Assembly (NCBI GenBank): GCA_002189035.1
Contig: NEEC01000294.1
Span: 1 to 49,472, forward strand
From: Utricularia gibba
Taxonomy: Eukaryota > Streptophyta > Magnoliopsida > Lamiales > Lentibulariaceae
Direction: 5' to 3'
DNA length: 49,472 nt
Below are positions 8,086 to 49,472 of the stretch, piece after piece. Numbering within the stretch: the first letter of the stretch is position 1; every line of letters begins with the position of its first letter. The position numbers were made by a program, and so were the translations under genes. The notes under the pieces were generated by a model. That model was given only the letters and a program-made list of their open reading frames with translations. It was not told the DNA's origin and did no database searches.

Positions 8086-8156
8086 TACATCACTTTATTT
8101 GCCGGACTACAACTAACTCTCGGTGCAAGCCAAACATTACCTTTGTCCCGTTCCAG

Positions 8157-17627: not shown

Positions 17628-17926
17628 ATGCATCATTTTTTTTAATCGATTTGCATCCAGTTGACCTCATGAGCCATACAGAATCGGGTCAAGGACCAAG
17701 TTCCAGCACTGGCCGCCACAAACGAGAAGCTGTTCCTTGAAAAACCATGTAGGCAACACCGAAAACCGAACGTTAATAAATACATCACTTTCTTTGCCGG
17801 CTACAACTACTTTGGCAAGCCTAAGCTGATCTTTTTCCGTTCCAAGTGCCCCCAAGACCGCCTCCTCAGTATAAAGTAGTTGTTAAAAAATCATGTGGGG
17901 TGCACGTGACATCATAATTTAAACAA
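17628..17926. repeat. First A/B hybrid unit (299 bp)
   Basis: The unit begins as type A, then switches within the CAAGTTCCAGCACTGG stretch to B-diagnostic bases (AGCTGTTCC, CAACACCG, CGTTAATAAA, CTTTCTTTGCC, AGCTGATCTTTTTCC, CGCCTCCTC) and returns to A at the CACGTGACATCATAA tail. It marks the left limit of B material. The loss of GAG in AGCACTGG is shared with the B units at 20108 and 22903. Confidence 0.9.
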
Positions 17927-18545
17927 ATGCATCATTTTTTTATCGATTTGCATCCAGTTGACCTCATGAGCCATACAGAATGGGTCAAGGACCAAGTTCC
18001 CAGCGAGACTGGCCGCCACAAAACGAGAAGCGGTTCCTTGAAAAACCATGTAGGCAGCCCCCGAAAACGAACGATAATAAATACATCACTTTATTTGCCG
18101 GACTACAACTAACTCTCGTGCAAGCCAACCTTACCTTTGTCCGTTCCAGTGCACCCAAAGACGCCTGCTCAAGTATAAAGTAAGTTGTTGAAAAAATCAT
18201 GTGGGTGCACGTGACATCATAATTTAAAACAAATGCATCATTTTTTTTAATCGATTTGCATCCAGTTGACCTCATGAGCCATACAGAATCGGGTCAAGGA
18301 CCAAGTTCCCAGCGAGACTGGCCGCCAAAAACGAGAAGCGGTTCCTTGAAAAACCATGTAGGCAGCCCCCGAAAACCGAACAATAATAAATACATCACTT
18401 TATTTGCCGGACTACAACTAACTCTCGGTGCAAGCCAAACCTTACCTTTGTCCCGTTCCAGGTGCACCCAAAGACCGCCTGCTCAAGTATAAAGTAAGTT
18501 GTTGAAAAAATCATGTGGGTGCACGTGACATCGTAATTTAAACAA

Positions 18546-18854
18546 ATGCATCATTGTATTCATTGATTTGTATCCTTTTGTCCTCATGAGCCATAAAGAA
18601 TCGGGGCCCGGACCAAGTTCCTAGCGAAACTGGCCGCCACAAAACGAGAAGCTGTTCCTTGAAAAACCATGTAGGCAACACCGAAAACCGAACGTTAATA
18701 AATACATCACTTTCTTTGCCGGGCTACAACTTACTTTGGGCCGCCTAAGCTGATCTTTTTCCGGTTCCAAGTGCCCCCCAAGACCGCCTCCTCAGTATAA
18801 AGTATGTTGTTAAAAAAATCATGTGGGGTGCACTTGACATCGTAATTTAAACAA
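18546..18854. repeat. B unit (309 bp)
   Basis: This is the first complete B: TTGTATTCATTGATTTG, CCTTTTGTCC, ATAAAGAATCGGGGCCCGG, TTCCTAGCGAAAC, CAACACCG, CGTTAATAAA, and a CACTTGACATCG tail. Its left flank reads GACATCGTAA and so lacks the GATATC seen before most later B units. It has GGGCCGCCTAAGC where other full-length B copies have GGGCCAAGGCCTAAGC. Confidence 0.92.
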
Positions 18855-19169
18855 ATGCATCATTTTTTTATTCGATTTGCATCCAGTTGACCTCATGAGC
18901 CAGACAGAAATGGGGTCAAGGACCAAGTTCCCAGCGAGACTGGCCGCCACAAAACGAGAAGCGGTTCCTTGAAAAACCATGTAGGCAGCCCCCGAAAAAC
19001 GAACGATAATAAATACATCACTTTATTTGCCGGACTACAACTAACTCTCGGTGCAAGCCAAACATTACCTTTGTCCCGTTCCAGGTGCACCCAAAGACCG
19101 CCTGCTCAAGTATAAAGTAAGTTGTTGAAAAAATCATGTGGGGTGCACGTGACATCATAATTTAAACAA
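18855..19169. repeat. C unit (junction-type A) after B
   Basis: It carries TTATTCGATTT in place of TTTAATCGATTT, CCAGACAGAAATGGGG in place of CCATACAGAATCGGGG, and GAAAAACGAACG in place of GAAAACCGAACG. The rest is type A. This is the reference form of C. Confidence 0.9.
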
Positions 19170-20107
19170 ATGCATCATTTTTTTTAATCGATTTGCATCC
19201 AGTTGACCTCATGAGCCATACAGAATCGGTCAAGGACCAAGTTCCAGCGAGACTGGCCGCCACAAAACGAGAAGCGGTTCCTTGAAAAACCATGTAGGGC
19301 CCCGAAAACCGAACGATAATAAATACATCACTTTATTTGCCGGACTACAACTAACTCTCGGTGCAAGCCAAACTTACCTTTGTCCCGTTCCAGTGCACCC
19401 AAAGACCGCCTGCCTCAAGTATAAAGTAAGTTGTTGAAAAAATCATGTGGGGTGCACGTGACATCATAATTTAAACAAATGCATCATTTTTTTTAATCGA
19501 TTTGCATCCAGTTGACCTCATGAGCCATACAGAATCGGGTCAAGGACCAAGTTCCCAGCGAGACTGGCCGCCACAAAACGAGAAGCGGTTCCTTGAAAAA
19601 CCATGTAGGCAGCCCCCGAAAACCGAACGATAATAAATACATCACTTTATTTGCCGGACTACAACTAACTCTCGTGCAAGCCAACCTTACCTTTGTCCCG
19701 TTCCAGGTGCACCCAAAGACCGCCTGCTCAAGTATAAAGTAAGTTGTTGAAAAAAATCATGTGGGGTGCACGTGACATCATAATTTAAACAAATGCATCA
19801 TTTTTTTTAATCGATTTGCATCCAGTTGACCTCATGAGCCATACAGAATCGGGGTCAAGGACCAAGTTCCCAGCGAGACTGGCCGCCACAAAACGAGAAG
19901 CGGTTCCTTGAAAAACCATGTAGGCAGCCCCCGAAAAACGAACGATAATAAATACATCACTTTATTTGCCGGACTACAACTAACTCTCGGTGCAAGCCAA
20001 ACCTTACCTTTGTCCCGTTCCAGTGCACCCAAAGACCGCCTGCTCAAGTATAAAGTAAGTTGTTGAAAAAATCATGTGGGGTGCACGTGATATCGTAATT
20101 TAAACAA

Positions 20108-20405
20108 ATGCATCATTTTTTCATTGATTTATCCTTTTGACCTCATGAGCCATAAAGAATCGGGGGCCGGACCAAGTTCCTAGCACTGGCCGCCACAAAA
20201 CGAGAAGCTGTTCCTTGAAAAACCATGTAGGCAACCCGAAAACCGAACGTTAATAAATACATCACTTTCTTTGCCGGGCTACAACTTACTTTGGCAAGCC
20301 TAAGCTGACTTTTTTCCGGTTCCAAGTGCCCCCCAAGACCGCCTCCTCAGTATAAAGTGTTGTTAAAAAAATCATGTGGGTGCACTTGACATCGTAATTT
20401 AAAAA
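20108..20405. repeat. B unit (298 bp), shortened
   Basis: The 5' end is CATTTTTTCATTGATTTATCC and keeps GACCTC, so it is partly A-like there. It has CGGGGGCCGG, AGCACTGG (GAG lost), CAACCCG and TTGGCAAGCCTAAGCTGAC. It is preceded by GATATC at 20089. Confidence 0.9.
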
Positions 20406-20717
20406 ATGCATCATTTTTTTATTCGATTTGCATCCAGTTGACCTCATGAGCCAGACAGAATGGGGTCAAGGACCAAGTTCCCAGCGAGACTGGCCGCCAC
20501 AAAACGAGAAGCGGTTCCTTGAAAACCATGTAGGCAGCCCCCGAAAAACGAACGATAATAAATACATCACTTTATTTGCCGGACTACAACTAACTCTCGG
20601 TGCAAGCCAAACTTACCTTTGTCCCGTTCCAGGTGCACCCAAAGACCGCCTGCTCAAGTATAAAGTAAGTTGTTGAAAAAATCATGTGGGGTGCACGTGA
20701 CATCATAATTTAAACAA
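20406..20717. repeat. C unit
   Basis: It has TTATTCGATTT, CCAGACAGAATGGGG and GAAAAACGAACG. The landmark is preceded by AAAAAATG because an AAC was lost. Confidence 0.88.
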
Positions 20718-21343
20718 ATGCATCATTTTTTTTATCGATTTGCATCCAGTTGACCTCATGAGCCATACAGAATCGGGCAAGGACCAAGTTCCCAGCGAGA
20801 CTGGCCGCCACAAAACGAGAAGCGGTTCCTTGAAAAACCATGTAGGCAGCCCCCGAAAACGAACGATAATAAATACATCACTTTATTTGCCGGACTACAA
20901 CTAACTCTCGGTGCAAGCCAAACTTACCTTTGTCCCGTTCCAGGTGCACCCAAAGACCGCCTGCTCAAGTATAAAGTAAGTTGTTGAAAAAATCATGTGG
21001 GGTGCACGTGACATCATAATTTAAACAAATGCATCATTTTTTTTAATCGATTTGCATCCAGTTGACCTCATGAGCCATACAGAATCGGGGTCAAGGACCA
21101 AGTTCCCAGCGAGACTGGCCGCCACAAAACGAGAAGCGGTTCCTTGAAAAACCATGTAGGCAGCCCCCGAAAACCGAACGATAATAAATACATCACTTTA
21201 TTTGCCGGACTACAACTAACTCTCGGTGCAAGCCAAACCTTACCTTTGTCCCGTTCCAGTGCACCCAAAGACCGCCTGCTCAAGTATAAAGTAAGTTGTT
21301 GAAAAAATCATGTGGGGTGCACGTGATATCGTAATTTAAACAA

Positions 21344-21654
21344 ATGCATCATTGTATTCATTGATTTGTATCCTTTTGTCCTCATGAGCCATAAAGAATC
21401 GCGGGCCCGGACCAAGTTCCTAGCGAAACTGGCCGCCACAAAACGAGAAGCTGTTCCTTGAAAAACCATGTAGGCAACACCGAAAACGAACGTTAATAAA
21501 TACATCACTTTCTTTGCCGGCTACAACTTACTTTGGGCCAAGGCCTAAGCTGATCTTTTTCCGGTTCCAAGTGCCCCCAAGACCGCCTCCTCATGTATAA
21601 AGTATGTTGTTAAAAAAATCATGTGGGGTGCACTTGACATCGTAATTTAAACAA
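21344..21654. repeat. B unit (311 bp)
   Basis: It is a full-length B with CGCGGGCCCGG, TTCCTAGCGAAAC and GGGCCAAGGCCTAAGC. One C is missing in GAAAACGAACG. GATATC lies just upstream at 21325. Confidence 0.92.
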
Positions 21655-21963
21655 ATGCATCATTTTTTTTATTCGATTTGCATCCAGTTGACCTCATGAG
21701 CCAGACAGAAATGGGGTCAAGGACCAAGTTCCCAGCGAGACTGGCCCCACAAAACGAGAAGCGGTTCCTTGCCATGCAGGCAGCCCCCGAAAACGAACGA
21801 TAATAAATACATCACTTTATTTGCCGGACTACAACTAACTCTCGGTGCAAGCCAAACATTACCTTTGTCCCGTTCCAGGTGCACCCAAAGACCGCCTGCT
21901 CAAGTATAAAGTAAGTTGTTGAAAAAATCATGTGGGGTGCACGTGACATCATAATTTAAACAA
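21655..21963. repeat. C unit with CATGCAGG variant
   Basis: It has TTATTCGATTT and CCAGACAGAAATGGGG. It also has deletions in CTGGCCCCAC and after TTCCTTG, and CATGCAGG instead of CATGTAGG. The last variant is shared with the next two C units (23212 and 25074). Confidence 0.9.
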
Positions 21964-22902
21964 ATGCATCATTTTTTTTATCGATTTGCATCCAGTTGAC
22001 CTCATGAGCCATACAGAATCGGGTCAAGGACCAAGTTCCAGCGAGACTGGCCGCCACAAAACGAGAAGCGGTTCCTTGAAAAACCATGTAGGCAGCCCCC
22101 GAAAACCGAACGATAATAAATACATCACTTTATTTGCCGGACTACAACTAACTCTCGGTGCAAGCCAACCTTACCTTTGTCCCGTTCCAGGTGCCCAAAG
22201 ACCGCCTGCTCAAGTATAAAGTAAGTTGTTGAAAAAATCATGTGGGGTGCACGTGACATCATAATTTAAACAAATGCATCATTTTTTTTAATCGATTTGC
22301 ATCCAGTTGACCTCATGAGCCATACAGAATCGGGGTCAAGGACCAAGTTCCCAGCGAGACTGGCCGCCACAAAACGAGAAGCGGTTCCTTGAAAAACCAT
22401 GTAGGCAGCCCCCGAAAAACGAACGATAATAAATACATCACTTTATTTGCCGGACTACAACTAACTCTCGGTGCAAGCCAAACTTACCTTTGTCCCGTTC
22501 CAGGTGCACCCAAAGACCGCCTGCTCAAGTATAAAGTAAGTTGTTGAAAAAATCATGTGGGGTGCACGTGACATCATAATTTAAACAAATGCATCATTTT
22601 TTTTAATCGATTTGCATCCAGTTGACCTCATGAGCCATACAGAATCGGGTCAAGGACCAAGTTCCCAGCGAGACTGGCCGCCACAAAACGAGAAGCGGTT
22701 CCTTGAAAAACCATGTAGGCAGCCCCCGAAAACCGAACGATAATAAATACATCACTTTATTTGCCGGACTACAACTAACTCTCGGTGCAAGCCAAACCTT
22801 ACCTTTGTCCCGTTCCAGGTGCACCCAAAGACCGCCTGCTCAAGTATAAAGTAAGTTGTTGAAAAATCATGTGGGGTGCACGTGATATCGTAATTTAAAC
22901 AA

Positions 22903-23211
22903 ATGCATCATTTGTATTCATTGATTTGTATCCTTTTGTCCTCATGAGCCATAAAGAATCGGGGCCCGGACCAAGTTCCTAGCACTGGCCGCCACAAAAC
23001 GAGAAGCTGTTCCTTGAAAAACCATGTAGGCAACACCGAAAACGAACGTTAATAAATACATCACTTTCTTTGCCGGGCTACAACTTACTTTGGGCCAAGG
23101 CCTAAGCTGATCTTTTTCCGGTTCCAAGTGCCCCCCAAGACCGCCTCCTCATGTATAAAGTATGTTGTTAAAAAAATCATGTGGGGTGCACTGACATCGT
23201 AATTTAAACAA
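22903..23211. repeat. B unit (309 bp)
   Basis: It has TTTGTATTCATTGATTTG, CGGGGCCCGG, AGCACTGG (GAG lost, as at 17628 and 20108), GGGCCAAGGCCTAAGC and a CACTGACATCG tail. GATATC lies upstream at 22884. Confidence 0.92.
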
Positions 23212-23518
23212 ATGCATCATTTTATTCGATTTGCATCCAGTTGACCTCATGAGCCATACAGAATGGGGTCAAGGACCAAGTTCCCAGCGAGACTGGCCGC
23301 CACAAAACGAGAAGCGGTTCCTTGAAAACCATGCAGGCAGCCCCGAAAAACGAACGATAATAAATACATCACTTTATTTGCCGGACTACAACTAACTCTC
23401 GGTGCAAGCCAAACATTACCTTTGTCCCGTTCCAGTGCACCCAAAGACCGCCTGCTCAAGTATAAAGTAAGTTTTTAAAAAATCATGTGGGGTGCACGTG
23501 ACATCATAATTTAAACAA
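23212..23518. repeat. C unit with CATGCAGG variant
   Basis: The T-run is cut to CATTTTATTCGATTT. It also has ACAGAATGGGG, GAAAACCATGCAGG and GAAAAACGAACG, and ends in GTTTTTAAAAAATCATG. Confidence 0.88.
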
Positions 23519-24766
23519 ATGCATCATTTTTTTTAATCGATTTGCATCCAGTTGACCTCATGAGCCATACAGAATCGGGTCAAGGACCAAGTTCCCAGCG
23601 AGACTGGCCGCCACAAAACGAGAAGCGGTTCCTTGAAAACCATGTAGGCAGCCCCCGAAAAACGAACGATAATAAATACATCACTTTATTTGCCGGACTA
23701 CAACTAACTCTCGGTGCAAGCCAAACATTACCTTTGTCCCGTTCCAGGTGCACCCAAGATGCTCAAGTATAAAGTAAGTTGTTGAAAAAATCATGTGGGT
23801 GCACGTGACATCATAATTTAAACAAATGCATCATTTTTTTTAATCGATTTGCATCCAGTTGACCTCATGAGCCATACAGAATCGGGTCAAGGACCAAGTT
23901 CCCAGCGAGACTGGCCGCCAAAACGAGAAGCGGTTCCTTGAAAAACCATGTAGGCAGCCCCCGAAACCGAACGATAATAAATACATCACTTTATTTGCCG
24001 GACTACAACTAACTCTCGGTGCAAGCCAAACATTACCTTTGTCCCGTTCCAGGTGCACCCAAAGACCGCCTGCTCAAGTATAAAGTAAGTTGTTGAAAAA
24101 ATCATGTGGGGTGCACGTGACATCATAATTTTAAACAAATGCATCATTTTTTTTAATCGATTTGCATCCAGTTGACCTCATGAGCCATACAGAATCGGGT
24201 CAAGGACCAAGTTCCCAGCGAGACTGGCCGCCACAAAACGAGAAGCGGTTCCTTGAAAAACCATGTAGGCAGCCCCCGAAAAACGAACGATAATAAATAC
24301 ATCACTTTATTTGCCGGACTACAACTAACTCTCGTGCAAGCCCAACCTTACCTTTGTCCCGTTCCAGGTGCACCCAAGACCGCCTGCTCAAGTATAAAGT
24401 AAGTTGTTGAAAAATCATGTGGGGTGCACGTGACATCATAATTTAAACAAATGCATCATTTTTTTTAATCGATTTGCATCCAGTTGACCTCATGAGCCAT
24501 ACAGAATCGGGGGTCAAGGACCAAGTTCCCAGCGAGACTGGCCGCCACAAAACGAGAAGCGGTTCCTTGAAAAACCATGTAGGCAGCCCCCGAAAACCGA
24601 ACGATAATAAATACATCACTTTATTTGCCGGACTACAACTAACTCTCGGTGCAAGCCAAACCTTACCTTTGTCCCGTTCCAGGTGCACCCAAAGACCGCC
24701 TGCTCAAGTATAAAGTAAGTTGTTGAAAAAATCATGTGGGTGCACGTGATATCGTAATTTAAACAA

Positions 24767-25073
24767 ATGCATCATTGTATTCATTGATTTGTATCCTTTT
24801 GTCCTCATGAGCCATAAAGAATCGCGGCCGGACCAAGTTCCTAGCAAAACTGGCCGCCACAAAACGAGAAGCTGTTCCTTGAAAAACCATGTAGGCAACA
24901 CCGAAAACCGAACGTTAATAAATACATCACTTTCTTTGCCGGGCTACAACTTACTTTGGGCCAAGCCTAAGCTGATCTTTTTCCGGTTCCAAGTGCCCCC
25001 CAAGACCGCCTCCTCATGTATAAAGTATGTTGTTAAAAAAGGTGGGGTGCACTTGACATCGTAATTTAAACAA
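24767..25073. repeat. B unit (307 bp) with 3' deletion
   Basis: It has CGCGGCCGG and TTCCTAGCAAAACTGG. Near the end ATCATG is lost, giving TTAAAAAAGGTGGGG. GATATC lies upstream at 24748. Confidence 0.91.
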
Positions 25074-25385
25074 ATGCATCATTTTTTTTTATTCGATTTG
25101 CATCCAGTTGACCTCATGAGCCAGACAGAAATGGGGTCAAGGACCAAGTTCCCAGCGAGACTGGCCGCCACAAACGAGAAGCGGTTCCTTGATAAACCAT
25201 GCAGGCAGCCCCGAAAAACGAACGATAATAAATACATCACTTTATTTGCCGGACTACAACTAACTCTCGGTGCAAGCCAAACATTACCTTTGTCCCGTTC
25301 CAGGTGCACCCAAAGACCGCCTGCTCAAGTATAAAGTAAGTTGTTGAAAAAATCATGGGTGCACGTGACATCATAATTTAAACAA
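25074..25385. repeat. C unit with CATGCAGG variant
   Basis: It has TTATTCGATTT, CCAGACAGAAATGGGG, GATAAACCATGCAGG and GAAAAACGAACG. It is the third consecutive C unit with CATGCAGG. Confidence 0.9.
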
Positions 25386-25700
25386 ATGCATCATTTTTTT
25401 TATCGATTTGCATCCAGTTGACCTCATGAGCCATACATAATCGGGATCAAGGACCAAGTTCCCAGCGAGACTGGCCGCCACAAAACGAGAAGCGGTTCCT
25501 TGAAAAACCATGTAGGCAGCCCCCGAAAAACGAACGATAATAAATACATCACTTTATTTGCCGGACTACAACTAACTCTCGGTGCAAGCCAAACATTACC
25601 TTTGTCCCGTTCCAGGTGCACCCAAAGACCGCCTGCTCAAGTATAAAGTAAGTTGTTGAAAAAATCATGTGGGGTGCACGTGACATCATAATTTAAACAA

Positions 25701-26013
25701 ATGCATCATTTTTTTAATCGATTTGCATCCAGTTGACCTCATGAGCCATACAGAATCGGGGTCAAGGACCAAGTTCCCAGCGAGACTGGCCGCCAAAAAC
25801 GAGAAGCGGTTCCTTGAAAAACCATGTAGGCAGCCCCGAAAAGCGAACGATAATAAATACATCACTTTATTTGCCGGACTACAACTAACTCTCGATGCAA
25901 GCCATACCTTACCTTTGTCCCGTTCCAGGTGCACCCAAAGACCGCCTGCTCAAGTATAAAGTAAGTTGTTGAAAAAATCATGTGGGGTGCACGTGATATC
26001 GTAATTTAAACAA
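25701..26013. repeat. B-1 variant A unit (GATGCAAGCCATACC)
   Basis: Directly before the B unit at 26014, this A unit reads CTCGATGCAAGCCATACC instead of CTCGGTGCAAGCCAAACC. The same variant recurs at 35936 and 47740, again directly before a B unit. It also has GAAAAGCGAACG. Confidence 0.85.
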
Positions 26014-26319
26014 ATGCATCATTGTATTCATTGATTTGTATCCTTTTGTCCTCATGAGCCATAAAGAATCGGGGCCCGGACCAAGTTCCTAGCGAGACTG
26101 GCCGCCACAAAACGAGAAGCTGTTCCTTGAAAAACCATGTAGGCACCGAAAACCGAACGATAATAATACATCACTTTCTTTGCCGGGCTACAACTTACTT
26201 TGGGCCAAGGCCTAAGCTGATCTTTTCCGTTCCAAGTGCCCCCCAAGACCGCCTCCTCAGTATAAAGTATGTTGTTAAAAAAATCATGTGGGGTGCACGT
26301 GACATCGTAATTTAAACAA
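26014..26319. repeat. B unit (306 bp)
   Basis: It has CGGGGCCCGG, AGGCACCG (ACA lost) and the A-type base in CGATAATAATAC, where AATAAA is lost. GGGCCAAGGCCTAAGC is intact. The tail is CACGTGACATCG, so the E-box is kept. Confidence 0.9.
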
Positions 26320-26633
26320 ATGCATCATTTTTTTTTATTCGATTTGCATCCAGTTGACCTCATGAGCCATACAGAATGGGGTCAAGGACCAAGTTCCCAG
26401 CGAGACTGGCCGCCAAAAACGAGAAGCGGTTCCTTGAAAAACCATGTAGGCAGCCCCCGAAAACCGAACGATAATAAATACATCACTTTATTTGCCGGAC
26501 TACAACTAACTCTCGGTGCAAGCCAAACTTACCTTTGTCCCGTTCCAGGTGCACCCAAAGACCGCCTGCTCAAGTATAAAGTAAGTTGTTGAAAAAATCA
26601 TGTGGGGTGCACGTGACATCATAATTTAAACAA
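26320..26633. repeat. C unit
   Basis: It has TTATTCGATTT and ACAGAATGGGG but normal GAAAACCGAACG, so it has only the 5' half of the C signature. Confidence 0.85.
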
Positions 26634-26948
26634 ATGCATCATTTTTTTAATCGATTTGCATCCAGTTGACCTCATGAGCCATACAGAATCGGGGTCAAGG
26701 ACCAAGTTCCCAGCGAGACTGGCCGCCACAAAACGAGAAGCGGTTCCTTGAAAAACCATGTAGGCAGCCCCCGAAAACCGAACGATAATAAATACATCAC
26801 TTTATTTGCCGGACTACAACTAACTCTCGGTGCAAGCCAAACCTTACCTTTGTCCCGTTCCAGGTGCACCCAAAGACCGCCTGCTCAAGTATAAAGTAAG
26901 TTGTTGAAAAAATCATGTGGGGTGCACGTGACATCGTAATTTAAACAA

Positions 26949-27246
26949 ATGCATCATTTTTTTCATCGATTTGCATCCTTGACCTCATGAGCCATACAGA
27001 ATCGGGGCAAGGACCAAGTTCCAGCGAGACTGGCCGCCACAAAACGAGAAGCGGTTCCTTGAAAAACCATGTAGGCAACCCGAAAACCGAACGATAATAA
27101 ATACATCACTTTATTTGCCGGGCTACAACTTACTTTCAAGCCTAAATCTTTTTCCGTTCCAAGTGCCCCCCAAGACCGCCTCCTCAAGTATAAAGTAAGT
27201 TGTTAAAAAATCATGTGGGGTGCACGTGACATCGTAATTTAAACAA
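26949..27246. repeat. B/A hybrid unit (298 bp)
   Basis: The first two-thirds are A-like (CATCGATTTGCATCC, ACAGAATCGGGGCAAGG, GCGGTTCC, CGATAATAAA). The last third is B-like (GGGCTACAACTTAC, AAGCCTAAATCTTTTTCC, AAGTGCCCCCC, CGCCTCCTC). The flank is GACATCGTAA without GATATC, and no typical C unit follows. Confidence 0.87.
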
Positions 27247-39378: not shown

Positions 39379-39688
39379 ATGCATCATTTTTTTTAATCGA
39401 TTTGCATCCAGTTGACCTCATGAGCCATACAGAATCGGGTCAAGGACCAAGTTCCCAGCGAGACTGGCCGCCACAAAACGAGAAGCGGTTCCTTGAAAAA
39501 CATGTAGGCAGCCCCGAAAACCGAACGATAATAAATACATCACTTTATTTGCCGGACTACAACTAACTCTCGGTGCAAGCCTAAGCTGACTTTTGTCCGG
39601 TTCCTCTGCCCCAAGACCGCCTGCTCAAGTATAAAGTAAGTTGTTAAAAAAATCATGTGGGGTGCACGTGACATCATAATTTAAACAA
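39379..39688. repeat. B+2 hybrid unit (type D)
   Basis: It is type A with GAAAAACATGTAGG (one C lost), followed by a B-like segment GCAAGCCTAAGCTGAC, TTTTGTCCGGTTCCTCTGCCCC and GTTGTTAAAAAAATC. Similar units occur two positions after B at 44021 and 48673, and in part at 42169. Confidence 0.85.
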
Positions 39689-40000
39689 ATGCATCATTTT
39701 TTTTAATCGATTTGCATCCAGTTGACCTCATGAGCCATACAGAATCGGGGTCAAGGACCAAGTTCCCAGCGAGACTGGCCGCCACAAAACGAGAAGCGGT
39801 TCCTTGAAAAACCATGTAGGCAGCCCCGAAAACGAACGATAATAAATACATCACTTTATTTGCCGGACTACAACTAACTCTCGATGCAAGCCAACCTTAC
39901 CTTTGTCCCGTTCCAGGTGCACCCAAAACCGCCTGCTCAAGTATAAAGTAAGTTGTTGAAAAAATCATGTGGGGTGCACGTGACATCATAATTTAAACAA

Positions 40001-40300
40001 ATGCATCATTTATTTATTGATTTGCATCCTTTTGTCCTCATGAGCCATAAAGAATCGCGGGCCCGGACCAAGTTCCTAGCGAGACTGGCCGCCACAAAAC
40101 GAGAAGCGTTCCTTGAAAAACCATGTAGGCAACCCGAAAACCGAACGTTAATAAATACATCACTTTTTGCCGGGCTAAACTACTTTGGCAAGCCTAAGCT
40201 GACTTTTTCCGGTTCCAAGTGCCCCAAAACCGCCTCCTCATGTATAAAGTAAGTTGTTAAAAAATCATGTGGGGTGCACTTGACATCGTAATTTAAACAA
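40001..40300. repeat. B/A hybrid unit (300 bp)
   Basis: CATTTATTTATTGATTTGCATCC keeps the octamer. The centre is B (CCTTTTGTCC, CGCGGGCCCGG, CGTTAATAAA), but it has GCGTTCC and CAACCCG. The 3' end reads TATAAAGTAAG as in A, then CACTTGACATCG as in B. There is no GATATC upstream. Confidence 0.87.
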
Positions 40301-40614
40301 ATGCATCATTTTTTTTATTCGATTTGCATCCAGTTGACCTCATGAGCCATACAGAATCGGGGTCAAGGACCAAGTTCCCAGCGAGACTGGCCGCCACAAA
40401 ACGAGAAGCGGTTCCTTGAAAAACCATGTAGGCAGCCCCGAAAACCGAACGATAATAAATACATCACTTATTTGCCGGACTACAACTAACTCTCGGTGCA
40501 AGCCAAACATTACCTTTGTCCCGTTCCAGGTGCACCCAAAGACCGCCTGCTCAAGTATAAAGTAAGTTGTTGAAAAAATCATGTGGGGTGCACGTGACAT
40601 CATAATTTAAACAA
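40301..40614. repeat. C unit, mostly reverted to A
   Basis: Only TTATTCGATTT is C-type. CACTTATTTGCC has lost one T. Confidence 0.82.
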
Positions 40615-41554
40615 ATGCATCATTTTTTTTAATCGATTTGCATCCAGTTGACCTCATGAGCCATACAGAATCGGGGTCAAGGACCAAGTTCCCAGCGAGA
40701 CTGGCCGCCACAAAACGAGAAGCGGTTCCTTGAAAAACCATGTAGGCAGCCCCCGAAAACCGAACGATAATAAATACATCACTTTATTTGCCGGACTACA
40801 ACTAACTCTCGGTGCAAGCCAAACCTTACCTTTGTCCCGTTCCAGGTGCACCCAAAGACCGCCTGCTCAAGTATAAAGTAAGTTGTTGAAAAAATCATGT
40901 GGGGTGCACGTGACATCATAATTTAAACAAATGCATCATTTTTTTTAATCGATTTGCATCCAGTTGACCTCATGAGCCATACAGAATCGGGGTCAAGGAC
41001 CAAGTTCCCAGCGAGACTGGCCGCCACAAACGAGAAGCGGTTCCTTGAAAAACCATGTAGGCAGCCCCCGAAAACGAACGATAATAAATACATCACTTTA
41101 TTTGCCGGACTACAACTAACTCTCGGTGCAAGCCAACTTACTTTGTCCCGTTCCAGGTGCACCCAAAGACCGCCTGCTCAAGTATAAAGTAAGTTGTTGA
41201 AAAAATCATGTGGGGTGCACGTGACATCATAATTTAAACAAATGCATCATTTTTTTTATCGATTTGCATCCAGTTGACCTCATGAGCCATACAGAATCGG
41301 GGTCAAGGACCAAGTTCCCAGCGAGACTGGCCGCCACAAAACGAGAAGCGGTTCCTTGAAAAACCATGTAGGCAGCCCCCGAAAACCGAACGATAATAAA
41401 TACATCACTTTATTTGCCGGACTACAACTAACTCTCGTGCAAGCCAAACCTTACCTTTGTCCCGTTCCAGTGCACCCAAAGACCGCCTGCTCAAGTATAA
41501 AGTAAGTTGTTGAAAAAATCATGTGGGGTGCACGTGATATCGTAATTTAAACAA

Positions 41555-41865
41555 ATGCATCATTGTATTCATTGATTTGTATCCTTTTGTCCTCATGAGC
41601 CATAAAGAATCGCGGGCCCGGACCAAGTTCCTAGCGAGACTGGCCGCCACAAAACGAGAAGCTGTTCCTTGAAAAACCATGTAGGCAACACCGAAAACCG
41701 AACGTTAATAAATACATCACTTTCTTTGCCGGGCTACAACTTACTTTGGGCCAAGGCCTAAGCTGATCTTTTTCCGGTTCCAAGTGCCCCAAAACCGCCT
41801 CTCATGTATAAAGTATGTTGTTAAAAAAATCATGTGGGGTGCACTTGACATCGTAATTTAAACAA
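41555..41865. repeat. B unit (311 bp)
   Basis: It has CGCGGGCCCGG, GGGCCAAGGCCTAAGC and GTGCCCCAAAACCGCCTCTCATG, with a CACTTGACATCG tail. GATATC lies upstream at 41536. Confidence 0.92.
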
Positions 41866-42168
41866 ATGCATCATTTTTTTTATTCGATTTGCATCCAGTT
41901 GACCTCATGAGCACAGAATGGGGTCAAGGACCAAGTTCCCAGCGAGACTGGCCGCCAGAAGCGGTTCCTTGAAAAACCATGTAGGCAGCCCCGAAAAACG
42001 AACGATAATAAATACATCACTTTATTTGCCGGACTACAACTAACTCTCGGTGCAAGCCAAACATTACCTTTGTCCCGTTCCAGGTGCACCCAAAGACCGC
42101 CTGCTCAAGTATAAAGTAAGTTGTTGAAAAAATCATGTGGGGTGCACGTGACATCATAATTTAAACAA
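41866..42168. repeat. C unit with internal deletion
   Basis: It has TTATTCGATTT, GAGCACAGAATGGGG and GAAAAACGAACG. The CAAAACG of CCGCCACAAAACGAGAAG is missing (CCGCCAGAAG). Confidence 0.87.
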
Positions 42169-42473
42169 ATGCATCATTTTTTTTAATCGATTTGCATCCA
42201 GTTGACCTCATGAGCCATACAGAATCGGGTCAAGGACCAAGTTCCCAGCGAGACTGGCCGCCACAAAACGAGAAGCGGTTCCTTGAAAAACCATGTAGGC
42301 AGCCCCCGAAAACCGAACGATAATAAATACATCACTTTATTTGCCGGACTACAACTAACTCTCGGTGCAAGCCAAACTTTTTGTCCGTTCCCCCCCCCAA
42401 AGACCGCCTGCTCAAGTATAAAGTAAGTTGTTGAAAAAATCATGTGGGGTGCACGTGACATCATAATTTAAAA
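42169..42473. repeat. B+2 unit with rearranged 3' third and C9 run
   Basis: After CTCGGTGCAAGCC it reads AAACTTTTTGTCCGTTC followed by a run of nine C (42390-42398) and AAAGACC, so the ACCTT and AGGTGCA portions are gone. It sits at the offset where other blocks have the D hybrid. Confidence 0.78.
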
Positions 42474-42787
42474 ATGCATCATTTTTTTAATCGATTTGCA
42501 TCCAGTTGACCTCATGAGCCATACAGAATCGGGGTCAAGGACCAAGTTCCCAGCGAGACTGGCCGCCACAAAACGAGAAGCGGTTCCTTGAAAAACCATG
42601 TAGGCAGCCCCGAAAACCGAACGATAATAAATACATCACTTTATTTGCCGACTACAAACTAACTCTCGGTGCAAGCCAAACATTACCTTTGTCCCGTTCC
42701 AGGTGCACCCAAAGACCGCCTGCTCAAGTATAAAGTAAGTTGTTGAAAAAATCATGTGGGGTGCACGTGACATCATAATTTAAACAA

Positions 42788-43086
42788 ATGCATCATTTTT
42801 TTTAATCGATTTGCATCCAGTTGACCTCATGAGCCATACAGAATCGGGGTCAAGGACCAAGTTCCCAGCGAGACTGGCCGCCACAAAACGAGAAGCGGTT
42901 CCTTGAAAAACCATGTAGGCAGCCCCCGAAAACCGAACGATAATAAATACATCACTTTATTTGCCGGACTACAACTAACTCTCGGTGCAAGCCAACTTAC
43001 CTTTGTCCGAAAGACCGCCTGCTCAAGTATAAAGTAAGTTGTTAAAAAAATCATGTGGGGTGCACGTGACATCATAATTTAAACAA
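42788..43086. repeat. A unit lacking the GTTCCAGGTGCACC element (299 bp)
   Basis: It reads CTTTGTCCGAAAGACC, so the CGTTCCAGGTGCACCC stretch, including the AG and the left arm of the inverted repeat, is deleted. GTTGTTAAAAAAATC is B-like. Confidence 0.85.
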
Positions 43087-43398
43087 ATGCATCATTTTTT
43101 TTAATCGATTTGCATCCAGTTGACCTCATGAGCCATACAGAATCGGGGTCAAGGACCAAAGTTCCAGCGAGACTGGCCGCCACAAAACGAGAAGCGGTTC
43201 CTTGAAAAACCATGTAGGCAGCCCCCGAAAACGAACGATAATAAATACATCACTTTATTTGCCGGACTACAACTAACTCTCGTGCAAGCCAACCTTACCT
43301 TTGTCCCGTTCCAGTGCACCCAAAGACCGCCTGCTCAAGTATAAAGTAAGTTGTTGAAAAAATCATGTGGGGTGCACGTGATATCGTAATTTAAACAA

Positions 43399-43706
43399 AT
43401 GCATCATTGTATTCATTGATTTGTATCCTTTTGTCCTCATGAGCCATAAAGAATCGCGGGCCCGGACCAAGTTCCTAGCGAGACTGGCCGCCACAAAACG
43501 AGAAGCTGTTCCTTGAAAAACCATGTAGGCAACACCGAAAACCGAACGTTAATAAATACACTTTTTTGCCGGGCTACAACTTACTTTGGGCAAGGCCTAA
43601 GCTGATCTTTTTCCGGTTCCAAGTGCCCCCCAAAACCGCCTCCTCATGTATAAAGTATGTTGTTAAAAAATCATGTGGGGTGCACTTGACATCGTAATTT
43701 AAACAA
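43399..43706. repeat. B unit (308 bp)
   Basis: It has CGCGGGCCCGG, AATACACTTTTTTGCC (small deletion), GGGCAAGGCCTAAGC and CCCCCCAAAACCGCC. GATATC lies upstream at 43380. The next B is ten units away, the longest interval. Confidence 0.92.
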
Positions 43707-44020
43707 ATGCATCATTTTTTTTATTCGATTTGCATCCAGTTGACCTCATGAGCCAGACAGAATGGGGTCAAGGACCAAGTTCCCAGCGAGACTGGCCGCC
43801 AAAAACGAGAAGCGGTTCCTTGAAAAACCATGTAGGCAGCCCCCGAAAAACGAACGATAATAAATACATCACTTTATTTGCCGGACTACAACTAACTCTC
43901 GGTGCAAGCCAAACATTACCTTTGTCCCGTTCCAGGTGCACCCAAAGACCGCCTGCTCAAGTATAAAGTAAGTTGTTGAAAAAATCATGTGGGGTGCACG
44001 TGACATCATAATTTAAACAA
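43707..44020. repeat. C unit
   Basis: It has TTATTCGATTT, CCAGACAGAATGGGG and GAAAAACGAACG. Confidence 0.89.
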
Positions 44021-44328
44021 ATGCATCATTTTTTTTAATCGATTTGCATCCAGTTGACCTCATGAGCCATACAGAATCGGGTCAAGGACCAAGTTCCCAG
44101 CGAGACTGGCCGCCACAAAACGAGAAGCGGTTCCTTGAAAAACATGTAGGCAGCCCCCGAAAACGAACGATAATAAATACATCACTTTATTTGCCGGACT
44201 ACAACTAACTCTCGGTGCAAGCCAAGCTTACTTTTGTCCGGTTCCATTCCCCCAAGACCGCCTGCTCAAGTATAAAGTAAGTTGTTAAAAAAACATGTGG
44301 GGTGCACGTGACATCATAATTTAAACAA
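44021..44328. repeat. B+2 hybrid unit (type D)
   Basis: It has GAAAAACATGTAGG, GCAAGCCAAGCTTAC, TTTTGTCCGGTTCCATTCCCCC and GTTGTTAAAAAAACATGTGG. The last, which has lost a T, is shared with the D unit at 48673. Confidence 0.85.
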
Positions 44329-46512
44329 ATGCATCATTTTTTTAATCGATTTGCATCCAGTTGACCTCATGAGCCATACAGAATCGGGGTCAAGGACCAA
44401 GTTCCCAGCGAGACTGGCCGCCACAAAACGAGAAGCGGTTCCTTGAAAAACCATGTAGGCAGCCCCGAAAACCGAACGATAATAAATACATCACTTTATT
44501 TGCCGGACTACAACTAACTCTCGGTGCAAGCCAAACTTACCTTTGTCCCGTTCCAGGTGCACCCAAAGACCGCCTGCTCAAGTATAAAGTAAGTTGTTGA
44601 AAAAATCATGTGGGGTGCACGTGACATCATAATTTAAACAAATGCATCATTTTTTTTAATCGATTTGCATCCAGTTGACCTCATGAGCCATACAGAATCG
44701 GGGTCAAGGACCAAGTTCCCAGCGAGACTGGCCGCCACAAAACGAGAAGCGGTTCCTTGAAAAACCATGTAGGCAGCCCCCGAAAACGAACGATAATAAA
44801 TACATCACTTTATTTGCCGGACTACAACTAACTCTCGGTGCAAGCCAAACACCTTTGTCCCGTTCCAGGTGCACCCAAGACCGCCTGCTCAAGTATAAAG
44901 TAAGTTGTTAAAAAATCATGTGGGGTGCACGTGACATCATAATTTAAACAAATGCATCATTTTTTTTAATCGATTTGCATCCAGTTGACCTCATGAGCCA
45001 TACAGAATCGGGGTCAAGGACTCCCAGCGAGACTGGCCGCCACAAAACGAGAAGCGGTTCCCTTGAAAAACCATGTAGGCAGCCCCGAAAACCGAACGAT
45101 AATAAATACATCACTTTATTTGCCGACTACAACTAACTCTCGGTGCAAGCCAAACATTACCTTTGTCCCGTTCCAGGTGCACCCAAAGACCGCCTGCTCA
45201 AGTATAAAGTAAGTTGTTGAAAAAATCATGTGGGGTGCACGTGACATCATAATTTAAACAAATGCATCATTTTTTTAATCGATTTGCATCCAGTTGACCT
45301 CATGAGCCATACAGAATCGGGGTCAAGGACCAAGTTCCCAGCGAGACTGGCCGCCACAAAACGAGAAGCGGTTCCTTGAAAAACCATGTAGGCAGCCCCC
45401 GAAAACGAACGATAATAAATACATCACTTTATTTGCCGGACTACAACTAACTCTCGGTGCAAGCCAAAATTACCTTTGTCCGTTCCAGGTGCACCCAAAG
45501 ACCGCTGCTCAAGTATAAAGTAAGTTGTTGAAAAAATCATGTGGGGTGCACGTGACATCATAATTTAAACAAATGCATCATTTTTTTTATCGATTTGCAT
45601 CCAGTTGACCTCATGAGCCATACAGAATCGGGTCAAGGACCAAGTTCCCAGCGAGACTGGCCGCCACAAAACGAGAAGCGGTTCCTTGAAAAACCATGTA
45701 GGCAGCCCCCGAAAACCGAACGATAATAAATACATCACTTTATTTGCCGGACTACAACTAACTCTCGGTGCAAGCCAACATTACTTTGTCCGTTCCAGGT
45801 GCACCCCAAAGACCGCCTGCTCAAGTATAAAGTAAGTTGTTGAAAAAATCATGTGGGGTGCACGTGACATCATAATTAAAACAAATGCATCATTTTTTTT
45901 AATCGATTTGCATCCAGTTGACCTCATGAGCCATACAGAATCGGGGTCAAGGACCAAGTTCCCAGCGAGACTGGCCGCCACAAAACGAGAAGCGGTTCCT
46001 TGAAAAACCATGTAGGCAGCCCCGAAAACGAACGATAATAAATACATCACTTTATTTGCCGGACTACAACTAACTCTCGGTGCAAGCCAAACCTTACCTT
46101 TGTCCCGTTCCAGGTGCACCCAAAGACCGCCTGCTCAAGTATAAAGTAAGTTGTTGAAAAAATCATGTGGGTGCACGTGACATCATAATTTAAACAAATG
46201 CATCATTTTTTTTAATCGATTTGCATCCAGTTGACCTCATGAGCCATACAGAATCGGGGTCAAGGACCAAGTTCCCAGCGAGACTGGCCGCCACAAAACG
46301 AGAAGCGGTTCCTTGAAAAACCATGTAGGCAGCCCCCGAAAAACCGAACATAATAAATACATCACTTTATTTGCCGGACTACAACTAACTCTCGTGCAAG
46401 CCAAACCTTACCTTTGTCCCGTTCCAGGTGCACCCAAAGACCGCCTGCTCAAGTATAAAGTAAGTTGTTGAAAAAATCATGTGGGGTGCACGTGATATCG
46501 TAATTTAAACAA

Positions 46513-46815
46513 ATGCATCATTTATTCATTGATTTGCATCCTTTTGTCCTCATGAGCCATAAAGAATCGGGGCCCGGACCAAGTTCCTAGCGAGACTGGC
46601 CGCCACAAAACGAGAAGCGTTCCTTGAAAAACCATGTAGGCAACACCGAAAACCGAACGTTAATAAATACATCACTTTTTGCCGGACTACAACTACTTTG
46701 GGCAAGCCTAAGCTTCTTTTTTCCGGTTCCAGTGCCCCCCAAGACCGCCTCCTCAAGTATAAAGTATGTTGTTAAAAAATCATGTGGGGTGCACTTGACA
46801 TCATAATTTAAACAA
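46513..46815. repeat. B unit with A-like features (303 bp)
   Basis: It has CATTTATTCATTGATTTGCATCC (octamer kept), CGGGGCCCGG, GCGTTCC, GCCGGACTACAACTACTTTGGG, AAGCTTCTTTTTTCC and CTCAAGTATAAAGTATG. The tail is CACTTGACATCATAA. GATATC lies upstream at 46494. Confidence 0.89.
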
Positions 46816-47121
46816 ATGCATCATTTTTTTTATTCGATTTGCATCCAGTTGACCTCATGAGCCAACAGAATGGGGTCAAGGACCAAGTTCCCAGCGAGAC
46901 TGGCCGCCACAAAACGAGAAGCGGTTCCTTGAAAACCATGTAGGCAGCCCCAAAACGAACGATAATAAATATCACTTTATTTGCCGGACTACAACTAACT
47001 CTCGGTGCAAGCCAAACATTACCTTTGTCCCGTTCCAGGTGCACCCAAAGACCGCCTGCTCAAGTATAAAGTGTTGTTGAAAAAATCATGTGGGGTGCAC
47101 GTGACATCATAATTTAAACAA
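46816..47121. repeat. C unit
   Basis: It has TTATTCGATTT, GCCAACAGAATGGGG, and small deletions in GCCCCAAAACGAACG and AATAAATATCACTT. Confidence 0.86.
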
Positions 47122-47739
47122 ATGCATCATTTTTTTTAATCGATTTGCATCCAGTTGACCTCATGAGCCATACAGAATCGGGTCAAGGACCAAGTTCCCG
47201 CGAGACTGGCCGCCACAAAACGAGAAGCGGTTCCTTGAAAAACATGTAGGCAGCCCCCGAAAACCGAACGATAATAAATACATCACTTTATTTGCCGACT
47301 ACAACTAACTCTCGGTGCAAGCCAACATTACCTTTGTCCCGTTCCAGGTGCACCCAAAGACCGCCTGCTCAAGTATAAAGTAAGTTGTTGAAAAAATCAT
47401 GTGGGGTGCACGTGACATCATAATTTAAACAAATGCATCATTTTTTTTAATCGATTTGCATCCAGTTGACCTCATGAGCCATACAGAATCGGGGTCAAGG
47501 ACCAAGTTCCCAGCGAGACTGGCCGCCACAAAACGAGAAGCGGTTCCTTGAAAAACCATGTAGGCAGCCCCCGAAAACGAACGATAATAAATACATCACT
47601 TTATTTGCCGGACTACAACTAACTCTCGGTGCAAGCCAACCTTACCTTTGTCCCGTTCCAGGTGCACCCGCCTGCTCAAGTATAAAGTAAGTTGTTGAAA
47701 AAATCATGTGGGGTGCACGTGACATCATAATTTAAACAA

Positions 47740-48047
47740 ATGCATCATTTTTTTTAATCGATTTGCATCCAGTTGACCTCATGAGCCATACAGAATCGGG
47801 GTCAAGGACCAAGTTCCCAGCGAGACTGGCCGCCACAAAACGAGAAGCGGTTCCTTGAAAAACCATGTAGGCAGCCCCCGAAAACGAACGATAATAAATA
47901 CATCTTTTTATTTGCCGGACTACAACTAACTCTCGATGCAAGCCATACCTTACCTTTGTCCCGTTCCAAGTGCACCCGCCTGCTCAAGTATAAAGTAAGT
48001 TGTTGAAAAAATCATGTGGGGTGCACGTGATATCGTAATTTAAACAA
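47740..48047. repeat. B-1 variant A unit (GATGCAAGCCATACC)
   Basis: It has ACATCTTTTTATTTGCC, CTCGATGCAAGCCATACC, CCAAGTGCACCC and a deletion of the AAAGACC stretch (CACCCGCCTG). It is almost the same set of variants as at 35936, and again directly precedes B. Confidence 0.86.
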
Positions 48048-48357
48048 ATGCATCATTGTATTCATTGATTTGTATCCTTTTGTCCTCATGAGCCATAAAG
48101 AATCGCGGGCCCGGACCAAGTTCCTAGCGAGACTGGCCGCCACAAAACGAGAAGCTGTTCCTTGAAAAACCATGTAGGCAACACCGAAAACCGAACGTTA
48201 ATAAATACATCTTTTTGCCGGGCTACAACTTACTTTGGGCCAAGGCCTAAGCTGATCTTTTTCCGGTTCCAAGTGCCCCCCAAAACCGCCTCCTCATGTA
48301 TAAAGTATGTTGTTAAAAAAATCATGTGGGGTGCACTTGACATCGTAATTTAAACAA
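48048..48357. repeat. B unit (310 bp)
   Basis: It has CGCGGGCCCGG, AATACATCTTTTTGCC, GGGCCAAGGCCTAAGC and CCCCCCAAAACCGCC, with a CACTTGACATCG tail. GATATC lies upstream at 48029. It is the last B in the window. Confidence 0.92.
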
Positions 48358-48672
48358 ATGCATCATTTTTTTTATTCGATTTGCATCCAGTTGACCTCAT
48401 GAGCAAGACAGAAATGGGTCAAGGACCAAGTTCCCAGCGAGACTGGCCGCCAAAAAACGAGAAGCGGTTCCTTGAAAAACCATGTAGGCAGCCCCCGAAA
48501 AACGAACGATAATAAATACATCACTTTATTTGCCGGACTACAACTAACTCTCGGTGCAAGCCAAACATTACCTTTGTCCCGTTCCAGGTGCACCCAAAGA
48601 CCGCCTGCTCAAGTATAAAGTAAGTTGTTGAAAAAATCATGTGGGGTGCACGTGACATCATAATTTAAACAA
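48358..48672. repeat. C unit
   Basis: It has TTATTCGATTT, GAGCAAGACAGAAATGGG and GAAAAACGAACG. Confidence 0.89.
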
Positions 48673-48983
48673 ATGCATCATTTTTTTTAATCGATTTGCA
48701 TCCAGTTGACCTCATGAGCCATACAGAATCGGGTCAAGGACCAAGTTCCCAGCGAGACTGGCCGCCACAAAACGAGAAGCGGTTCCTTGAAAAAACATGT
48801 AGGCAGCCCCCGAAAACCGAACGATAATAAATACATCACTTTATTTGCCGGACTACAACTAACTCTCGGTGCAAGCCAAGCTGACTTTTGTCGGTTCCTC
48901 TTCCCCCCAAGACCGCCTGCTCAAGTATAAAGTAAGTTGTTAAAAAAACATGTGGGGTGCACGTGACATCATAATTTAAATAA
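48673..48983. repeat. B+2 hybrid unit (type D)
   Basis: It has GAAAAAACATGTAGG, GCAAGCCAAGCTGAC, TTTTGTCGGTTCCTCTTCC and GTTGTTAAAAAAACATGTGG. It closely matches the units at 39379 and 44021. Confidence 0.85.
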
Positions 48984-49297
48984 ATGCATCATTTTTTTAA
49001 TCGATTTGCATCCAGTTGACCTCATGAGCCATACAGAATCGGGGTCAAGGACCAATCCCAGCGAGACTGGCCGCCACAAAAACGAGAAGCGGTTCCTTGA
49101 AAAACCATGTAGGCAGCCCCCGAAAACCGAACGATAATAAATACATCACTTTATTTGCCGGACTACAACTAACTCTCGGTGCAAGCCAAACATTACCTTT
49201 GTCCCGTTCCAGGTGCACCCAAAGACCGCCTGCTCAAGTATAAAGTAAGTTGTTGAAAAAATCATGTGGGGTGCACGTGACATCATAATTTAAACAA

Positions 49298-49472
49298 ATG
49301 CATCATTTTTTTTAATCGATTTGCATCCAGTTGACCTCATGAGCCATACAGAATCGGGGTCAAGGACCAAGTTCCCAGCGAGACTGGCCGCCACAAAACG
49401 AGAAGCGGTTCCTTGAAAAACCATGTAGGCAGCCCCCGAAAACCGAACGATAATAAATACATCACTTTATTT
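49298..49472. repeat. Partial type-A unit at the right edge
   Basis: It is a canonical A unit from the landmark to CACTTTATTT. The array continues past the right edge. Confidence 0.95.

What the first reader, a model, noticed from the sequence alone, without database searches (positions are those of the whole stretch)
17628..49472. Two-subfamily higher-order repeat: B-C pairs every 3-10 units
B units differ from A at about 15 percent of positions, yet they are dispersed singly rather than clustered, and almost each is followed by the same junction-type unit C. The B-to-B intervals (3, 5, 4, 5, 6, 4, 3, 4, 3, 3, 3, 8, 5, 4, 5, 3, 4, 5, 6, 10, 5 units) centre on 3-5. This is what unequal exchange of multi-unit blocks produces. 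It resembles, in principle, higher-order repeats of other centromeric satellites but with variable length.
Basis: seen in the sequence. Interest (0 to 1): 0.72.

Follow-up and report, generated by a model that had tools for sequence, protein, structure and literature searches.

The report
Irregular higher-order repeat in plant satellite
A stretch of bladderwort-like plant DNA made only of a 315-letter repeat carries a variant pair of units that recurs every 3 to 10 units: an ordinary kind of satellite organisation, of interest mainly because this plant's centromeres have been described as lacking satellites.

Summary
The window is one contig (C90) of a 100.09-Mb angiosperm assembly, very probably Utricularia gibba, and is all ~315-bp satellite. 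From 17.6 kb on there are 19 full and 3 partial B units (about 11% substitutions from A). The unit before B is also marked (246C, 18 of 19).

Elsewhere the same A and B types form regular or nearly regular A-B dimers (C484; with exceptions C65, C487, C96, C7). Junction states flanking B there also flank B here. Best reading: a ~0.5-kb cassette related to that dimer was scattered through an expanding A array by out-of-register exchange. Copies are not ordered by position, so simple neighbour duplication is not shown. Bases are missing most often at variable sites, so exact spacing may be partly a consensus artefact.

Of 32 ends of 16 large contigs, five run into satellite, three of them opposite a telomere. 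Two contigs with telomeres at both ends show no exact satellite word in capped pattern listings. A centromeric location is plausible but unproven.

The parts
1..17590 (+). A-only part of the satellite array, ~315-bp units, 0-2 substitutions each
   Evidence: mean pairwise substitution 0.26% over 56 units
17591..49472 (+). A array with scattered B-C cassettes (irregular higher-order repeat)
17591..17889 (+). partial B unit (second half B-like, missing bases; not followed by C)
   Evidence: unit 57
18510..19132 (+). B + C
   Evidence: units 60-61
20071..20680 (+). B + C
   Evidence: units 65-66
21307..21926 (+). B + C
   Evidence: units 69-70
22866..23481 (+). B + C
   Evidence: units 74-75
24731..25351 (+). 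B + C
   Evidence: units 80-81
25977..26596 (+). B + C
   Evidence: units 84-85
26912..27209 (+). partial B unit; next unit has only 24G of the C marks
   Evidence: units 87-88
28153..28762 (+). B + C
   Evidence: units 91-92
29078..29337 (+). partial B-like unit with 55 missing bases
   Evidence: unit 94
29966..30582 (+). B + C
   Evidence: units 97-98
30899..31522 (+). B + C
   Evidence: units 100-101
33397..34023 (+). B + C
   Evidence: units 108-109
34964..35586 (+). B + C
   Evidence: units 113-114
36214..36838 (+). B + C
   Evidence: units 117-118
37786..38414 (+). B + C
   Evidence: units 122-123
38727..39341 (+). B + C
   Evidence: units 125-126
39964..40577 (+). B + C (B with 21 substitutions)
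   Evidence: units 129-130
41518..42131 (+). B + C
   Evidence: units 134-135
43362..43983 (+). B + C
   Evidence: units 140-141
46476..47084 (+). B + C
   Evidence: units 150-151
48011..48635 (+). B + C
   Evidence: units 155-156

Best explanation
The window is part of a long satellite array of ~315-bp monomers in a plant nuclear genome, very probably Utricularia gibba. A and B are two distinct monomer types, most likely sisters. In other contigs they alternate as an A-B dimer of about 625 bp. Here the homogeneous A monomer has expanded, and B occurs only inside a scattered cassette: the last part of the preceding unit (246C), one B unit, and the first part of the following unit (24G plus 16T, 54T, 86G, 94G), about 0.47-0.56 kb in all. 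The cassette has one origin, shares its junction states with the dimer, and was copied through the array by out-of-register exchange. Inferred: exchange between nearly identical A units changes the run lengths freely, while the ~11% A-B mismatch discourages exchange inside B, so B stays single and the interval varies. Also inferred: the array sits in a centromeric or pericentromeric block. Its function would be that of bulk satellite chromatin, with no separate role for the B-C pair.
For: Cassette coherence: at least three of six C marks after 19 of 19 full B units; five of the six marks in 0 of 111 units after A. In C38, C54 and C78 24G follows B in 13 of 15 and A in 0 of 56 units; 54T follows B in 13 of 15 and A in 1 of 56. 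Genome-wide, 28 of 34 exact B2 words have a C word about 300-315 bp downstream (my pairing of the lists; 15 of 15 in C90, 13 of 19 elsewhere). Shared junctions: 24G after B in 60 of 76 and 246C before B in 53 of 82 A units of the dimer loci, against 18 of 19 and 18 of 19 here. Regular dimer: C484 (L013) differs by 10% at lag 1 and 0.9% at lag 2; intervals of 2 throughout L013, mostly 2 in C65, C487 and C96. One contig, C10, has B units with B1 marks in 12-20 kb and with B2 marks beyond 23 kb. Sister status: at 39 A/B sites the outgroup arrays are split (C213 14 A-like, 14 B-like; C402 14/15 and 10/16). A expansion: pairwise substitution 0.26% in the A-only part and 0.67% among other A units, against 2.13% among B.
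Against: Neighbouring cassettes are not more alike than distant ones, which local unequal exchange would predict. 33 of the 61 C words have no exact B2 word one unit upstream; inexact copies may explain this, but it was not tested. In the dimer loci the 24G and 246C states could hardly be contrasted with A-A neighbours, as only 3 cases exist (P = 0.13 and 0.05). Six of eight C8 units lean to B at the 39 sites and two to A, so the sister reading rests on C213 and C402. The C10 stretch between the layouts, and much of its B1 side, is full of missing bases and is not a clean dimer (intervals 2-5); it could be a false join. Part of the B diversity may be sequencing error. No CENH3, FISH or raw-read data were available.
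Confidence: 0.6

Rival explanations
1. Assembly artefact: B units exist, but their positions, spacing and the partial B units were produced by collapsing and averaging reads from several arrays.
For: Missing bases concentrate at the variable sites 246 (17 of 42 other A units), 242 (13 of 42) and 181 (11 of 42). Three partial B units lack many bases. The transition zone of C10 is degraded.
Against: The B-C linkage recurs in four other contigs, C10, C38, C54 and C78, with different interval strings. Substitutions in the A units are very few. The spacing is more regular than random.
Confidence: 0.2
2. Simple local block duplication: cassettes were duplicated next to one another, so position along the array mirrors descent.
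For: Intervals centre on 3-5. 164C is carried by three consecutive C units. C54 has a period-4 signal and C38 a period-7 signal.
Against: Mantel and joint permutation tests are not significant. The window has no sharp period (mean differences 0.034-0.049 over lags 1-12).
Confidence: 0.3
3. The satellite is not centromeric but belongs to subtelomeric or interstitial heterochromatin, or to a few chromosomes only.
For: Contigs C3 and C4, with telomeres at both ends, have no listed exact word of the families. PMC8333044 (passages) reports an absence of satellite repeats in putative centromeric regions of U. gibba.
Against: C213, C244 and C451 have telomere repeats at one end and a satellite array at the other, 3.4-6.8 Mb away. 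The satellite at the C414 start lies near gag and RNase H remnants of a retrotransposon.
Confidence: 0.35
4. The B-C cassette was spread by reinsertion of excised circles or by gene conversion rather than by crossing over.
For: Single dispersed copies with the same junction states and no order by position.
Against: C carries 16T, 54T, 86G and 94G, each found in 0 of 76 units after B in the dimer loci, so recent conversion from those dimers is unlikely; conversion among the cassettes is not excluded.
Confidence: 0.2

Closest known systems
A-B dimer higher-order repeat of the Sorghum bicolor centromere satellite (PMC4053949, passages)
   Same: Two monomer variants of one satellite form a dimer that is itself repeated, and A and B group apart in a tree (as in C484 here).
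   Different: In the window 1-8 A units lie between one cassette and the next B, and a third junction type (C) occurs.
Switchgrass centromere repeats with multi-monomer HORs that include truncated units (PMC4053949, passages)
   Same: Multi-unit HORs of unequal composition in a plant satellite.
   Different: There the HORs described have fixed lengths within a read; here the length varies from 3 to 10 units.
Primate HOR satellites (PMC4053949, passages; details of alpha-satellite recalled)
   Same: Monomer types in a fixed order inside a larger repeated unit.
   Different: No fixed HOR length here, and no positional gradient could be shown.
Species with both repeat-based and repeatless centromeres, such as potato (search listing only; otherwise recalled)
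   Same: Some large contigs end in satellite arrays, two others have both telomeres and no listed satellite word.
   Different: No CENH3 data here, so the comparison is only a lead.

Membership tests
Higher-order-repeat satellite | Distinct monomer subfamilies that form clades | tested here: met
   B 19 of 19 in the window (support 0.71), 82 of 82 without C8 (0.88); C 34 of 34 with 2 further units (0.93), though 0.0 within the window alone
Higher-order-repeat satellite | Monomer types in a fixed order inside the repeated block | tested here: met
   246C unit before B 18 of 19; C after B 19 of 19
Higher-order-repeat satellite | Copies of the same type more alike than different types | tested here: met
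   Within-type pairwise substitution 0.26-2.13% against 11% for A-B
Higher-order-repeat satellite | Constant length of the higher-order unit | tested here: not met
   Intervals 3-10 units and shallow lag profile in the window; met in C484, L013
Higher-order-repeat satellite | Descent by local block duplication (neighbours most alike) | tested here: inconclusive
   Mantel P = 0.32, 0.08, 0.56; joint permutation P = 0.22 and 0.41
Centromeric satellite | Long tandem arrays of high copy number | tested here: met
   9,535 exact copies of a conserved 20-mer in the assembly, 140 of them in the window
Centromeric satellite | Placed at chromosome interiors, between two arms | tested here: inconclusive
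   5 of 32 ends of 16 large contigs are satellite, 3 of them opposite a telomere; C3 and C4 have no listed exact word
Centromeric satellite | Bound by CENH3 nucleosomes | not testable with these tools
   no ChIP data
Centromeric satellite | FISH signal at primary constrictions | not testable with these tools
   no cytology

The most novel reading that the evidence does not exclude
The unfinished chromosomes of Utricularia gibba have satellite-based centromeres, built of array-specific versions of two satellite families (about 300-315 bp and 336-344 bp) with different higher-order layouts, while the chromosomes that assembled completely lack them. The published picture of satellite-free, neocentromere-like centromeres in this miniature genome would then rest on the chromosomes that happened to assemble, and the B-C-A arrays would show a regular dimer HOR dissolving under the expansion of one monomer.
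Probability: 0.4. Interest if true: 0.65.

Novelty: new member of a known kind. Interest (0 to 1): 0.42.

Why it matters
Higher-order repeats are known in many satellites (PMC4053949, passages), so the pattern itself is ordinary. It would matter as a possible intermediate: regular A-B dimers in some contigs, and in others an A array with scattered cassettes that keep the dimer's junction states. It would matter more if the array is centromeric, because the statement seen here (PMC8333044, passages) is that satellite repeats are absent from the putative centromeres of U. gibba. The assembly itself holds 9,535 exact words of this family and 2,279 of a second one.

Tried and rejected
RNA family: no Rfam match in window 17,000-22,000, the only part searched. 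Special single-strand structure: one A unit folds no better than shuffles (z = 0.72; 80 of 100 shuffles fold at least as well). C as merely the A unit of the dimer: rejected as stated, because C has 16T, 54T, 86G and 94G, each in 0 of 76 dimer-locus units after B; only 24G is shared. B as a derivative of A, or A of B: not supported, since C213 and C402 are split. Order by position: not found. C90 as an overlap of C54 or C38: the interval strings seen differ, but only 10 kb of each was compared. Literature: 314-bp and 315-bp with satellite and centromere (one unrelated paper each), Utricularia gibba with centromere and satellite, tandem-repeat or PacBio terms, and Lentibulariaceae with centromeric repeat gave no description of this satellite in the listings or in the passages I read. 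The U. gibba assembly paper (doi 10.1073/pnas.1702072114) is not held; I know its statement on centromeres only through the passage in PMC8333044.

Dropped before counts: searches left unsegmented double units unclassified; and later replaced this by a wrap-around alignment. The tree left out units with more than 25 missing bases, more than 12 inserted bases or incomplete ends, and used the window and 7 of the 11 ten-kilobase loci then held (not L011, L012, L014, L017). The neighbour test left out incomplete units and those with more than 40 missing bases, and did not use L017 or L037. Pattern listings show only the first 100 places; that C1 to C6 have none is read from lists that appear to run in contig order and begin at C7, C7, C7, C32 and C34. 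Of the large contigs only 16 were looked at (C1-C4 and others met in the histone search), and at their starts only 200-600 bases (C414 also beyond).
Full report
What the window is. The 49,472-base window is one whole contig (C90) of an assembly of 100,091,633 bases in 516 contigs. Tandem Repeats Finder sees only a 314-bp repeat, in two rows that together cover nearly all of it. The genome is that of a flowering plant: plant-type histone H3 (my reading) and long runs of TTTAGGG. I take it to be the PacBio assembly of the bladderwort Utricularia gibba. Its COX1 frame contains two contiguous cysteines, a feature reported for Utricularia and some Genlisea (PMC3141634, passages). A contig of 6,822,880 bases fits the 'Unitig_8 (6.8 Mb)' of PMC8333044 (passages). 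The sizes of the large contigs seen (1.7-8.5 Mb) suit the contig N50 of 3.4 Mb given in PMC5793159 (passages). No record names the genome, so the species is an inference.

Observation. I cut the array by wrap-around alignment to the A consensus, frame starting at ATCATGTGGGG. The first 17.6 kb are A units with 0-2 substitutions; missing bases are far more common than substitutions (3.2 per unit) and look like sequencing error. All 19 full B units are followed by a C unit with at least three of six marks. The marks 16T, 24G, 54T, 86G and 94G occur in 0 of 111 units that follow an A unit, 181A in 6 of 111. The unit before B has 246C in 18 of 19, against 14 of 42 other A units of that region and 10 of 56 in the A-only part (P = 5e-6 against the 42, or 0.002 with gaps left out). 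The spacing is more regular than random (P = 0.0005 for the minimum, 0.003 for the spread).

Tree and order. In a FastTree tree of 374 units, B units of the window form a group of 19 of 19 (support 0.71). B units of the window and six loci form a group of 82 of 82 if the C8 units are set aside (0.88), and of 81 of 82 if they are kept (0.74). C units of four contigs form a group of 34 of 34 plus two further units (0.93); one of these two follows a B-like unit just under the cut-off. Within the window alone the split of the 19 C units had support 0.0. B-1 units do not form a clade (best 5 of 19 with 1 other). Distances between B, C or B-1 units do not grow significantly with distance along the array (Mantel P = 0.32, 0.08, 0.56), and informative sites show no joint clustering of carriers (P = 0.22 for 23 sites, 0.41 for 15).

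The same monomers elsewhere. An A-specific 31-mer occurs 2,270 times and a B-specific one 1,730 times in the assembly (reversed-pattern controls 0). In the listings for C7 A and B mostly alternate at about 625 bp, with exceptions. Unit cutting gives B-B intervals of 2 throughout L013 (C484), and mostly 2 with some 1 or 3 in the loci of C65, C487 and C96; C96, C65 and C114 also contain hybrid-looking units. B units of these loci are mostly of another subtype (B1: 25C, 42A) than those of the window (B2: 56T, 63T). A B2 word occurs 34 times, in C10, C38, C54, C78 and C90 only; a C word occurs 61 times, in nine contigs. By my pairing, 28 of 34 B2 words have the C word about 300-315 bp downstream, 15 of 15 in C90 and 13 of 19 elsewhere; 33 of 61 C words have no exact B2 word upstream. 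C54 has a period-4 and C38 a period-7 signal, and C8 holds more divergent units with a period of four. A further word typical of divergent members occurs 1,534 times.

Relation of the two layouts. In the dimer loci the A unit carries 24G next to the B before it (60 of 76) and 246C next to the B after it (53 of 82, with 25 gaps). In the window the same states sit on either side of B, but on two different A units: 24G on C (18 of 19), 246C on B-1 (18 of 19). In C38, C54 and C78 the counts are 13 of 15 and 12 of 13. That is what results if A units were added inside the A unit of a B-A dimer, or if a dimer-related cassette was carried into an A array. Within the dimer loci only 3 A units have an A neighbour on the side concerned, so the contrast there is weak (P = 0.13 and 0.05). 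In contig C10 six of eight B units between 12 and 20 kb have at least one B1 mark and none a B2 mark, and all six B units beyond 23 kb have B2 marks and no B1 mark; the low side is full of missing bases and not a clean dimer there. At 39 sites that distinguish A and B, outgroup copies of C213 and C402 are split (14 and 14; 14 and 15; 10 and 16), while six of eight C8 units lean to B and two to A. I read A and B as sisters.

Mechanism. Shown: coherent cassette, shared junction states, variable A runs, and higher homogeneity of A (0.26-0.67% pairwise) than of B (2.13%, error included). Inferred: out-of-register exchange between nearly identical A units changes run lengths, and exchange within B is rarer because of the 11% mismatch. 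Not shown: which of crossing over, conversion or reinsertion moved the cassette. A caution applies to everything that depends on exact spacing: in the 42 other A units bases are missing most often at the variable sites 246 (17), 242 (13) and 181 (11), which suggests averaging of reads from different copies.

Where the array lies. I looked at both ends of 16 large contigs, with 200-600 bases at the starts and 2,000 at the ends. Of 32 ends, 13 carry telomere repeats, 5 are satellite, 1 is withheld (N) and 13 are neither. C213, C244 and C451 have telomere repeats at the start and satellite at the end. The last 12.5 kb of C213, apart from 653 bases not fetched, are units about 69% identical to A. 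The ends of C244 and C451 are a second satellite of 344 and 336 bp, 75% alike, with 2,279 exact words in the assembly. The C402 end has blocks of the first family every ~2.3 kb. The C414 start has about 127 bp of the family (85% identity), and gag and RNase H domains lie within the next 7 kb; that these are of Ty3/gypsy type is my reading. C3 and C4 have telomeres at both ends and no listed exact word. A centromeric place is therefore plausible for some chromosomes. The conserved 20-mer occurs 9,535 times, 140 of them in the window of about 159 units, so some 3.4 Mb of the assembly may be this family (my estimate). [quoted passage not shown] gibba; the present data show that the assembly holds such repeats, but not that they are centromeric.

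Verdict. The pattern is real in the assembly and is an irregular higher-order repeat of a plant satellite, related to an A-B dimer. HORs of this kind are known (PMC4053949, passages). I file it as a new member of a known kind, with a modest extra interest from the genome it is in.

Noticed in passing
G000 C244 end (L050) and C451 end (L058, L065): A second satellite family of 344 and 336 bp, 75% alike, at the ends of telomere-bearing contigs; 2,279 exact copies of a shared 24-mer in the assembly.
   Followed up: partly
G000 C402:2618001-2629907 (L066, L053): A composite repeat of about 2.33 kb: some 840 bp of the satellite family and other DNA with a 62-bp minisatellite, four full blocks in L066.
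   Followed up: partly
G000 C8:1-10000 (L037): Divergent units of the family that mix A-like and B-like states, with a period-four higher-order signal.
   Followed up: partly
G000 C34, C37, C47, C50, C52 and others: A further subfamily word with 1,534 exact copies, listed first in contigs that did not appear in the A, B, B2 or C listings seen.
   Followed up: no
window 39342-39651, 43984-44291, 48636-48946: Three units two places after a B share a block of variants (244G, 251T, 259G and others), in the right half of the array only; perhaps a segment of another subfamily.
   Followed up: no
G000 C414:1-10000 (L033, L056, L067): Near the satellite fragment at the contig start lie gag and RNase H domains of a retrotransposon, probably of Ty3/gypsy type.
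   Followed up: partly
G000 C515 (L042): The COX1 frame has two contiguous cysteines and runs on into what looks like an intron-encoded LAGLIDADG protein; the latter is my reading of the letters, not a search result.
   Followed up: no
G000 contigs C1, C2, C409, C505: Contig lengths are multiples of 2,500 (8,500,000; 6,192,500; 2,492,500; 3,452,500), so these ends may be cuts rather than natural contig ends.
   Followed up: no
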